DNA of 15,563 nucleotides from Natrinema soli (lineage in GTDB: Archaea > Halobacteriota > Halobacteria > Halobacteriales > Natrialbaceae). The translations under genes were made by a program, and so were the position numbers. Where the stretch lies: the NCBI RefSeq assembly GCF_028618695.1, contig NZ_JAQIVI010000502.1, forward strand, positions 1 through 15,563. The letters are read 5' to 3'. Position 1 is the first letter of the stretch, and each line of letters begins with the position of its first letter. The notes beneath the pieces are model-generated. The model saw nothing but the letters and a program-made list of their open reading frames with translations. It was not told where the DNA came from and made no database searches. Of the stretch, positions 5,683-15,563 are shown piece after piece.

Positions 5683-5842
5683 ACCGATCGCACAGTCTGC
5701 GGTTCGCGCTCCCTTCGAACGCTCACGGCTCGCTTCGCTCACCGTTCGCATTTCGCGGTTCTCGCTCACTCTGTTCGCTCCGAACCGCGCATCGCTCCGA
5801 ACCGCGCATCTCCGAACCGCGCTCCCGTCGTTTGATCGGGTG
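5683..5842. repeat. Intergenic dispersed repeat, copy A
   Basis: This ~160-base non-coding block matches, in inverted orientation, the block at 14372-14515. Shared features in order are accgatcgcacag, cgctcacggctcg, ctcaccgttc, a 27-base identical block at 5754-5780, gctccgaaccgcgc and gatcgggtg. Copy A is longer because ccgaaccgcgc occurs three times (5780, 5797 and 5812) against once in copy B. The ends carry imperfect inverted repeats (accgatc versus the complement of gatcgggt). No transposase is present, so it behaves like a MITE or other small non-autonomous repeat. Confidence 0.75.
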
Positions 5843-5898
5843 CAGTGACGTTCAGTGGTTACTATCGCAGCCATCCAAGCGAGAGCGTACCGTCGGAC

Positions 5899-14286: not shown

Positions 14287-14371
14287 TCGCTCGCAGTCCC
14301 AGTCGTTACTCGAGGCGAACTGTGTACCGGAGCTCCCCCTCTGGCTTCTAACTATCGTAGCCAGACAGTCA

Positions 14372-14515
14372 CACCCGATCGAACAACGAGAGCGCGGTTC
14401 GGAGCGACGCGAGCCGTGAGCGAACAGAGTGAGCGAGAACCGCGGGGCGTGAACGGTGAGTGAAACGAGCCGTGAGCGTCCGACGTGAGCAAGAAGCGCA
14501 GCCTGTGCGATCGGT
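14372..14515. repeat. Intergenic dispersed repeat, copy B (inverted relative to copy A)
   Basis: This ~144-base block is the reverse complement of the copy at 5683-5842, with a 27-base identical block at 14418-14444. Its own ends are imperfect inverted repeats: tcacacccgatcgaaca on the left against the complement of the right end, tgacacaccgatcgcaca. The octamer ATCGTAGC lies on both sides (14354-14361 and 14522-14529) in direct orientation, resembling a target-site duplication. It is non-coding, between coxB and the guide RNA gene. The interval 14287-14371 holds nothing else that I can identify. Confidence 0.72.
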
Positions 14516-14537
14516 GTGTCAATCGTAGCAGTTGGTA

Positions 14538-14545
14538 CTATATAC
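14538..14545 (+). promoter_or_regulatory. TATA-like element upstream of the guide RNA
   Basis: CTATATAC predicts a start near 14569. A second candidate, GAGTTAAACG at 14576-14585, predicts a start near 14608, right at the first hairpin (14606). Either could drive the RNA. Confidence 0.45.
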
Positions 14546-14603
14546 ACGACGCGCCGCGAGGACTCGAGTCTACAAGAGTTAAACGGGTCGCGTTCCTAGA
14601 TGA

Positions 14604-14788
14604 GGTGCGTGCCTTTAGTCCCCGTCCGAGCAGACCCATTCGGGTGCGATGACAGTACGGCGAACCCGGGCACGCGACAATAGTACCCGGAGAGCTCCCA
14701 CGAGTTCTCCCGCCCGGCACGAGGGTTAGCCAGCCGACGCGGCACGCCGCCACGGGATGAGGCTGGACGTTAGTGTTCCGGGCGCACA
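14604..14788 (+). ncRNA. Double-hairpin H/ACA guide RNA (sR-h45-like)
   Basis: Two long hairpins each end at an ACA. Hairpin 1: lower stem TGCGTGCC (14606-14613) with GGCACGCG (14669-14676), then ACA at 14677; upper stem CCGT/ACGG (14622-14625/14657-14660); right pocket AACCCG, 14 bases from the ACA. Hairpin 2: lower stem CGCCCGG (14711-14717) with CCGGGCG (14778-14784), then C and ACA at 14786; upper stem CCAGCC/GGCTGG, capped by a kink-turn-like GA ... TGA pair; left pocket GAGGGTTA (14721-14728) and right pocket GTTA (14769-14772). The pockets fit the conserved haloarchaeal 23S segments GUAAC-U-AUGACCCUC and GGGUU-U-AGAC, the type of sites guided by sR-h45 in Haloferax volcanii (from memory). 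A small hairpin lies between at 14690-14709. The ends are approximate. Confidence 0.72.
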
Positions 14789-14905
14789 TTGACTACGTAG
14801 AGCGGTTGCTCTCGTTCGTCGACGTCACGACTTCCCCAGTAATCCTCGGTTACTCGGCCCTCTCCAATAGCGATCGATACGAGAGACTGTCCAGCACGCA
14901 AGTAG
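14789..14905. other. Intergenic region downstream of the guide RNA
   Basis: A short hairpin AGAGC-GGTT-GCTCT (14799-14812) follows 10 bases after the last ACA and could help end the RNA, although no T-tract is seen. Otherwise nothing is identifiable before the stop of the DUF7344 gene. Confidence 0.3.
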
Positions 14906-15325
14906 CTACGTTGGACTCTGATCGTCGCGTTCAGTTAACAGTTCGCTGTAAAGAAACGACTCAGTAGAGTTGTTGATGGTTATATCGGGCTCTTCAACCG
15001 CCCGTGCCTGTTCCACTGTCGACCGTATCGCATCGAATCGATCACCCACGATAATATCACCACTTCGGCGGTCGTAGTTCACCAACCCATGATCAACCAA
15101 TCGTGGAAGATGATTGTGCACTAACGACAGCGTTACCGTGTTCAGCGCGTCTTCAGAAACGTTCTCGATCGGAATATCTTGCTCCCACCCAGCGATCTGG
15201 AGTGATACCCCGTCGACGTTTGCGTACTCACTATCCAGTAAGTAATACAGGACGTATCGACGATATGAGTCGGACAGAAGCCCGTAAAGCGCGTCGAAAT
15301 CCGCATCGTCTACCCCTGTATCCAT
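14906..15325 (-). CDS. DUF7344-type winged-helix regulator
   Basis: This 139-residue acidic protein has the haloarchaeal wHTH pattern: DALYGLLSDSYRRYVLYYLL near the N-terminus, a middle insert GWEQDIPIENVSEDA, then TLSLVHNHLPRLVDHGLVNY (recognition helix) and the wing DRRSGDIIVGD. It has no transmembrane segment or extra domain. Such DUF7344 proteins are presumed transcription regulators with unknown targets. The ATG at 15325 lies 27 bases from a TATA-like element, so the transcript is leaderless. It is downstream of, and on the same strand as, the rRNA operon, but separated from it by a terminator-like hairpin and its own promoter. Confidence 0.87.
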   Translation of the reverse strand: MDTGVDDADFDALYGLLSDSYRRYVLYYLLDSEYANVDGVSLQIAGWEQDIPIENVSEDALNTVTLSLVHNHLPRLVDHGLVNYDRRSGDIIVGDRFDAIRSTVEQARAVEEPDITINNSTESFLYSELLTERDDQSPT

Positions 15326-15484: not shown

Positions 15485-15504
15485 AAGAAAGTCTGCGTAT
15501 GAGT

Positions 15505-15563
15505 GGAGGCGGCGAAACGAGTTTCCCAGAGGCTCGCGCACTCCAGTACTCACCGTAACGCTG
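15505..15563 (-). rRNA. rrf: 5S ribosomal RNA, 3' half (5' part outside window)
   Basis: The minus strand reads CAGCGTTACGGTGAGTACTG, then GAGTGCGCGAGCCTCTGGGA and AACTCGTTTCGCCGCCTCC, which matches the 3' half of haloarchaeal 5S rRNA (compare Haloarcula: AGCGUUCCGGGGAGUACUGG ... CGCGAGCCUCUGGGAAA ... UUCGCCGCC). About 59 of ~122 bases are visible, and the 5' part lies beyond the right edge. The rest of an rRNA operon (16S-23S) is expected further right. No tRNA-Cys, often present after haloarchaeal 5S, is seen downstream. The 3' end is placed by comparison and may be off by a few bases. Confidence 0.9.

What the first reader, a model, noticed from the sequence alone, without database searches (positions are those of the whole stretch)
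14604..14788. Probable H/ACA pseudouridylation guide RNA between coxB and a DUF7344 regulator
Two hairpins with long perfect lower stems both end at an ACA, have an internal pocket, an upper stem and kink-turn-like GA/UGA elements. The pocket sequences fit conserved 23S rRNA sites known to carry pseudouridine in haloarchaea. Single-sequence ORF calling would fill this stretch with false ORFs on both strands. It resembles Haloferax sR-h45, so it is probably a homologue rather than a new class, but it would be missed by standard annotation.
Basis: partly seen in the sequence, partly recalled or inferred. Interest (0 to 1): 0.78.

Follow-up and report, generated by a model that had tools for sequence, protein, structure and literature searches.

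The report
Haloarchaeal rRNA-modification guide RNA, known kind
This stretch very probably encodes a small RNA that tells the cell which three spots of its ribosomal RNA to modify; it is the local version of a guide RNA already described in salt-loving archaea, and tracing it turned up a second candidate guide next to the ribosomal RNA genes of its relatives.

Summary
The finding holds. Window 14606-14788 (+) carries two H/ACA hairpins with k-turn-like elements, pockets and ACA boxes. Aligned with 56 (HP1) and 57 (HP2) relatives, the stems stay paired through double changes: 97.5% and 97.1% of cells paired, 12 of 21 and 9 of 17 pairs with double changes, 0 of 500 shuffles as high on cells paired. 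Scored against the U's of a relative's 16S and 23S rRNA with one unpaired nucleotide, HP1 ranks U2618 first and HP2 U1953 and U1955. With a constant offset of 3 these are Psi2621, Psi1956 and Psi1958, already assigned to HP1/HP2 of Haloferax and other halobacteria. So it is an orthologue of a known guide (recalled name sR-h45); Rfam 15 gave no match. The window ends inside a 5S gene. Transcription and modification were not tested. Side result, possibly new: a second conserved H/ACA-like hairpin, 472-855 nt upstream of 16S, same strand, in all 52 of 70 loci that hold a 16S start, with 23S U2604 as predicted target.

The parts
14570..14587 (+). Promoter-like block CTACAAGAGTTAAACGGG, its TTAAAC 22-27 nt upstream of the first stem
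   Evidence: AAGAGTTAA sits 33-34 nt before the stem in the window and in 27 of 27 genus loci; outside the genus only 5 of 40 loci have GTTAA in the 45 nt before the stem. Promoter role inferred.
14606..14679 (+). Hairpin 1 (HP1): lower stem, pocket, upper stem, k-turn-like element, ACA box
   Evidence: Alignment A1, pair counts, consensus fold
14614..14620 (+). HP1 5' pocket; its last three bases GUC pair with GAC 3' of the target U
   Evidence: U2618 first at one unpaired nt; GUC in 55 of 57 sequences
14663..14667 (+). HP1 3' guide AACCC, pairs with GGGUU 5' of the target U; 14 nt from the upper stem to the ACA box
   Evidence: AACCC in 56 of 57 sequences
14677..14679 (+). HP1 ACA box (ACA in 52, ATA in 5 of 57 sequences)
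14689..14710 (+). Small spacer hairpin between HP1 and HP2
   Evidence: Spacers of 0-180 nt in 68 loci; 42 of the 64 spacers of 20 nt or more fold better than all 60 of their mononucleotide shuffles
14711..14788 (+). Hairpin 2 (HP2): lower stem, pocket, upper stem, k-turn-like element, ACA box
   Evidence: Alignment A2, pair counts, consensus fold
14721..14728 (+). HP2 5' pocket GAGGGUUA, complementary to 23S ..UGACCCUC.. in two registers
   Evidence: U1953 and U1955 each first at one unpaired nt
14769..14774 (+). HP2 3' guide GUUAGU (GUUA for U1953; UAGU for U1955)
14786..14788 (+). HP2 ACA box, one nt further from the stem than in most relatives
   Evidence: of 58, ACA directly 32, after one nt 19; ATA directly 6, after one nt 1
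15504..15563 (-). 3' half of a 5S rRNA gene, cut by the window's end
   Evidence: Sub-threshold Rfam match, 19.6 bits against a gathering score of 38, model 63-120; colinear with L002, where a full 5S and the 23S follow

Best explanation
The stretch is the gene of a two-hairpin archaeal box H/ACA guide RNA, orthologous to the halobacterial HP1/HP2 RNA. Its RNA would assemble with L7Ae, Cbf5, Nop10 and Gar1. HP1's pocket holds 23S rRNA around U2618 (Natrinema numbering; Haloarcula 2621) and HP2's pocket holds U1953 and U1955 (1956, 1958) in two registers, so that Cbf5 converts these uridines to pseudouridine. Shown here: sequence, conserved structure, covariation, box conservation, complementarity, and a Cbf5 match in three close relatives. 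Inferred: transcription, assembly and modification.
For: DNA match in 67 of 80 relatives, and both hairpin models hit 6 of the 13 missed genomes. Covariation in lower and upper stems of both hairpins; HP1 columns 26-61 appear as UA, CG, GC, UG and AU. ACA/ATA box in 57 of 57 HP1 and 58 of 58 HP2. Pocket targets rank first among the U's of 16S+23S at one unpaired nucleotide and equal the published HP1/HP2 sites with one offset. Upper-stem end to ACA is 14 nt in HP1, within the published 14-16 nt. Promoter-like block in the window and 27 of 27 genus loci. Cbf5 over its cut-off in 3 of 3 relatives. The HP2 model hits 74 of 246 genomes of the phylum, some outside the order.
Against: No transcript data. 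Single-sequence folding is unremarkable. The HP1 target leads its runner-up only narrowly (7.5 against 7.1 of 9), and if two unpaired nucleotides are allowed other sites lead in all three registers, at lower scores: 6.65 of 9 for HP1, 8.1 and 7.7 of 10 for HP2. HP2's U1953 register leaves 17 nt to the ACA in the window, outside the usual 14-16; the literature solves this with an adjusted fold. Two same-genus genomes, 99% complete, show no orthologue (G002, G003); both are drafts of 120 and 30 contigs and the gene flanks an rRNA operon, so an assembly gap is likely but unproven. The promoter-like block is not kept outside the genus (5 of 40). The window's own 23S was not available; that of the nearest held genome was used. 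Each of the three Cbf5 matches runs over one TGA, not looked into.
Confidence: 0.95

Rival explanations
1. The hairpins are a processing or termination element of the neighbouring rRNA operon or of coxB, not a guide RNA.
For: In the genus the element sits 410-1161 nt beyond a 23S 3' end in 15 of 27 loci, and coxB lies upstream in the window.
Against: It is on the strand opposite to the rRNA in all 15 of those (convergent). Two of 27 genus loci show no 23S in about 1.5 kb, and 36 of 40 loci from other genera show none in the bases held, 227-2071 nt. Pockets, boxes and k-turn bases are conserved and fit known sites.
Confidence: 0.03
2. It is an H/ACA RNA but HP1 aims at another site, for example 23S U2592 in the A-loop region (GUUCGCC[U]), where a longer uninterrupted match exists.
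For: 12 contiguous pairs with U2592 in a scan without fixed geometry, second in the HP1 list after U387 with 13.
Against: It needs the 3' strand of the upper stem to open, gives 18 nt to the ACA box, and the complementary GGCGAAC is kept in only 39 of 57 sequences, whereas the guide AACCC is kept in 56 of 57.
Confidence: 0.04
3. The stretch is protein-coding on either strand.
For: An 83-aa antisense ORF covers 14538-14789.
Against: No Pfam match; relatives differ by spacers of 0-180 nt; changes are compensatory for RNA pairing.
Confidence: 0.01

Closest known systems
Haloferax volcanii / halobacterial H/ACA RNA HP1+HP2 (Hvo1, Hvo2a/b; recalled name sR-h45)
   Same: Two hairpins with a spacer between them, same three 23S sites, HP2 serving two sites (PMC2584109 section 24; PMC4652768 section 14).
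   Different: Only species, sequence detail and spacer were seen to differ; the spacer here is 28 nt (as counted) with one hairpin, while the paper speaks of a long spacer. The Haloferax sequence itself was not compared letter by letter.
Pyrococcus Pf7/Pab40 and Archaeoglobus Afu4 H/ACA RNAs
   Same: Published as related: HP2 homologous to Pf7 stem III, HP1 apparently to Pf7 stem II. The HP2 model also hits genomes outside the order, unnamed here.
   Different: Pf7 has three hairpins, adjacent; its stem I equivalent was not found in Haloferax according to the paper.
Eukaryotic H/ACA snoRNAs U19 / snR191
   Same: Guide the equivalents of Psi1956 and Psi1958 with one RNA (stated).
   Different: Eukaryotic; no sequence relation tested.

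Membership tests
Archaeal box H/ACA guide RNA | Stem - internal pocket - stem hairpin | tested here: met
Archaeal box H/ACA guide RNA | ANA (ACA) box 3' of the lower stem | tested here: met
   ACA or ATA in 57 of 57 HP1 and 58 of 58 HP2; one nt off the stem in 20 of 58 HP2, the window among them
Archaeal box H/ACA guide RNA | K-turn in the upper stem (GA ... UGA) | tested here: met
   By sequence only: HP1 GAUGA and the GA opposite invariant or at least 90%; HP2 likewise. L7Ae binding not tested.
Archaeal box H/ACA guide RNA | 14-16 nt from upper-stem closing pair to the box | tested here: met
   HP1 14 nt; HP2 15 nt in the U1955 register. The U1953 register gives 17 nt in the simple geometry (not met there; for the published adjustment).
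Archaeal box H/ACA guide RNA | Pocket complementary to sequences on both sides of a U | tested here: met
   each expected site ranks first at one unpaired nt, not at two
Archaeal box H/ACA guide RNA | RNA made and bound by Cbf5/L7Ae/Nop10/Gar1 | not testable with these tools
   Only the Cbf5 gene was searched, and found in 3 of 3 relatives
Halobacterial HP1/HP2 RNA (sR-h45) | Two hairpins, HP1 for Psi2621 and HP2 for Psi1956/1958 | tested here: met
   with offset 3; definition
Halobacterial HP1/HP2 RNA (sR-h45) | Sequence homology to the Haloferax volcanii RNA itself | not tested
Halobacterial HP1/HP2 RNA (sR-h45) | The three uridines are pseudouridine and depend on this gene | not testable with these tools
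   Needs mapping in wild type and deletion strain

The most novel reading that the evidence does not exclude
Haloarchaea carry a second, so far unreported H/ACA guide: a single hairpin, similar in plan to HP1, that lies 472-855 nt upstream of a 16S rRNA gene on the same strand, and that directs pseudouridylation of a fourth 23S site, U2604 (Natrinema numbering; Haloarcula 2607 by the same offset). If so, the three-Psi picture of haloarchaeal 23S rRNA is incomplete, and in the window's genus both guides stand beside rRNA operons.
Probability: 0.5. Interest if true: 0.6.

Novelty: new member of a known kind. Interest (0 to 1): 0.35.

Why it matters
The window's gene itself is an expected housekeeping RNA; its value is as a covariation-backed annotation for an RNA to which Rfam 15 gave no match, and as the seed that exposed a second, rRNA-operon-linked candidate guide. 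That second candidate predicts one further modified nucleotide in 23S rRNA, which can be tested directly by mapping that position.

Tried and rejected
Rfam scans found nothing at gathering scores over the window and nothing up to E 5 over 14300-14950. A single-strand fold gave no support by itself. A first target scan without a fixed geometry put other sites on top; fixing the pocket ends from the alignment put the known sites first at one unpaired nucleotide. One search used a structure with one mistyped bracket and was replaced. The structure string given to model R3 was displaced by three columns on its 3' side; one search exposed this (30.7% of cells paired) and recounted with the right structure (92.7%). 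R3 hits therefore rest mainly on sequence. For the second hairpin, 16S U24 and 16S U991 were considered as targets and score lower (U24 6.71 at one and 7.12 at two unpaired nt; U991 7.44 at two; U2604 8.44 of 10 at one). A link of its target to the orphan Psi2589 of Thermococcus was considered and dropped, since the numbering could not be mapped.

Literature: PMC2584109 seen as section 24 and passages; PMC4652768 as section 14 and passages; PMC6138745 as section 7 and passages; PMC3608112 and PMC7921747 as passages; all other papers as search listings only. The listings of searches and the passages read showed no report of the second hairpin; they cover open papers and show at most 20 titles each. 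The Haloferax paper PMC3138572 is not held. Absence from print is not shown.

Full report
Observation. At 14606-14679 the plus strand folds into a hairpin with a lower stem of nine pairs, the two end pairs U-G (14606-14614 with 14668-14676), ending in ACA. At 14711-14788 a second hairpin has a lower stem of seven pairs (14711-14717 with 14778-14784) and an ACA one nucleotide further on. Between them lies a small hairpin, 14689-14710.

Is it more than chance. One sequence alone would not convince: folding energy z -1.15, with 31 of 200 shuffles as good. Comparison does. The 201-nt stretch has a DNA match in 67 of 80 relatives, 38 of 46 genera. Both hairpins were located in the 67 loci taken from those genomes and in the window. 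Of these 68, 57 were aligned for HP1 and 58 for HP2; the 11 and 10 left out, to thin close kin, are all of the window's genus. HP1: 97.5% of cells paired, 12 of 21 pairs with changes on both sides, 0 of 500 shuffles as high on all five measures. HP2: 97.1%, 9 of 17 pairs, 0 of 500 on four measures and 1 of 500 on the fifth. Sliding the partner strand by 1 to 3 columns drops pairing to 21-53% and 22-45%. Shuffle controls ignore kinship, so the slid versions and the pair types are the better guide: HP1 columns 26-61 occur as UA 29, CG 19, GC 3, UG 2 and AU 1, with 3 unpaired.

The 13 genomes without a DNA match were searched with the two covariance models. HP1 hits 8 of 13, but the hit in G003 belongs to the second hairpin described below, leaving 7; HP2 hits 6 of 13, all among those 7. 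In all, 14 of the 16 other families sampled in the order have at least one hairpin; f13 and f16 have none. Two genomes of the same genus (G002, G003) show no orthologue. They are drafts, and since the gene borders an rRNA operon a gap in assembly is the likely cause, but this was not shown. Across the phylum HP2 hits 74 of 246 genomes, those outside the order at about 27-41 bits, in keeping with the published kinship to Archaeoglobus and Pyrococcus RNAs.

Targets. With the pocket ends fixed from the alignment, the U's of 16S and 23S rRNA of the nearest held genome (G001), those within about a dozen bases of an end excepted, were scored against the distinct guide pairs (4 for HP1, 2 for each HP2 register). 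With one unpaired nucleotide after the U, HP1 puts 23S U2618 (GCUGGGUU[U]AGACC) first, 7.5 of 9, with the runner-up at 7.1. HP2 puts U1953 first in one register (9.1 of 10, next 7.8) and U1955 first in the other (9.5 of 10, next 6.9). With two unpaired nucleotides other sites lead, at lower scores (6.65 of 9; 8.1 and 7.7 of 10). The literature assigns HP1 of halobacteria to Psi2621 and HP2 to Psi1956 and Psi1958, the hairpins separated by a spacer (PMC2584109 section 24); all three differ from our numbers by exactly 3. A later paper gives the folds Hvo1 and Hvo2a/b for the same sites (PMC4652768 section 14). The ANA box is ACA or ATA in every aligned sequence. The distance from the upper stem to the box is 14 nt for HP1 and 15 nt for HP2 at U1955; for U1953 the simple geometry gives 17 nt, which that paper answers with an adjusted fold.

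Context. The upstream neighbour is cytochrome oxidase subunit II, the downstream one a DUF7344 protein. The window's last 60 bases are the 3' half of a 5S rRNA gene on the minus strand (19.6 bits, below the gathering score of 38 and cut by the end), colinear with a relative in which the full 5S and 23S follow. In the genus, 15 of 27 loci have a 23S 3' end 410-1161 nt away, always convergent; 10 stop at a contig end first (171-1122 nt); L006 and L012 show none in about 1.5 kb. Of 40 loci from other genera, 4 show a 23S, all convergent, and 36 show none in the 227-2071 nt held. The window's own assembly is not held; its nearest genome shares 31% of sampled 31-letter words. A promoter-like AAGAGTTAA stands 33-34 nt before the first stem in the window and in 27 of 27 genus loci, but only 5 of 40 loci of other genera have GTTAA within 45 nt. 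The spacer varies from 0 to 180 nt in 68 loci; 42 of the 64 spacers of 20 nt or more fold better than all 60 of their own mononucleotide shuffles. So what is kept is mostly a spacer built of simple hairpins, not its sequence.

Mechanism. The most likely working is that of an archaeal H/ACA RNP: the RNA positions two stretches of 23S rRNA in its pockets and Cbf5 isomerises the uridine at the top. A Cbf5 match over the cut-off is present in 3 of 3 relatives tested; each match runs over one TGA, which was not looked into. Transcription, assembly and modification are inferred.

Second hairpin. The HP1 model returned a further hit in G003, and a search of 34 genomes found the same element in 10 of them at 34-44 bits; an eleventh hit, 24 bits, is unlike the others. 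It is a single hairpin with the HP1 plan: lower stem of eight or nine pairs, pocket, k-turn-like element and ACA or ATA, its pocket reading UAUCAU / CCUCC in most of the genus. A model built from ten copies hits 99 of 139 relatives at E 0.01, including all 29 of the genus, with a weak tail down to 29 bits, and 20 of 196 genomes of the phylum at E 0.001, none outside the order. The model does not hit the window itself. A pattern scan of named genomes listed 80 loci, 53 of them haloarchaeal, among them Halococcus, Halogeometricum, Halegenticoccus, Halorhabdus and Halalkalicoccus; the other 27 are bacterial and presumably chance. In 70 copies taken from the 99 genomes, the weakest left out, 92.7% of cells are paired with the correct structure and 12 of 20 pairs have double changes; shuffles reach the five measures 0, 1, 0, 36 and 0 times of 500. 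In 52 of the 70 loci a 16S start is held: all 52 lie downstream on the same strand, 472-855 nt away; 17 of the other 18 stop at a contig end within 610 nt, and L175 shows no 16S in 1479 nt.

Its best rRNA target is 23S U2604, AAAGGAGG[U]CGUGAGC: mean pairing 8.44 of 10 over 16 distinct guide pairs from 81 sequences (70 aligned plus 11 of 12 named ones tried; one could not be parsed), next best 6.71 with one unpaired nucleotide and 7.44 with two. The pocket base next to the stem alternates between U and C, as expected opposite a G. Of 100 and 200 random permutations of the guide columns, the best scores average 7.29 and 7.19; in the second set one of 200 ties the real score, at the same site and with two columns exchanged. 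Against it: four guide variants (CUAUC, AUCUC, CUCUC, GCUCC) break the pattern beside the stem; the site is the same in the five genomes whose 23S was read, including G053, in which R3 found nothing, so guide and site do not come and go together; [quoted passage not shown] No report of the element was seen in the listings of searches, which cover open papers only.

Verdict. The window's RNA is a new member of a known kind, with modest interest; the second hairpin is the part a specialist might find new.

Noticed in passing
L118:1690-1774 (+), L119:3153-3237 (-), L110:1537-1621 (-), L117:1592-1676 (+) and other loci: A second conserved H/ACA-like hairpin, 472-855 nt upstream of 16S rRNA on the same strand, with covarying stems and predicted target 23S U2604.
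   Followed up: yes
window 15504-15563: The window ends inside a 5S rRNA gene (minus strand): the contig appears to break at an rRNA operon.
   Followed up: yes
window 14683-14710; spacers of L043, L045, L046, L054, L059, L063: The HP1-HP2 spacer ranges from 0 to 180 nt and is often a chain of short hairpins of unrelated sequence.
   Followed up: partly
G006:C1:3469976-3470162 and G006:C1:1714667-1714853: One genome of the genus carries two copies of the guide gene with equal scores, and two copies of the second hairpin.
   Followed up: no
window 5692-5865: This stretch matches DNA just upstream of the guide gene in a relative (L002:1249-1425, 86% identity), as a dispersed repeat would.
   Followed up: no
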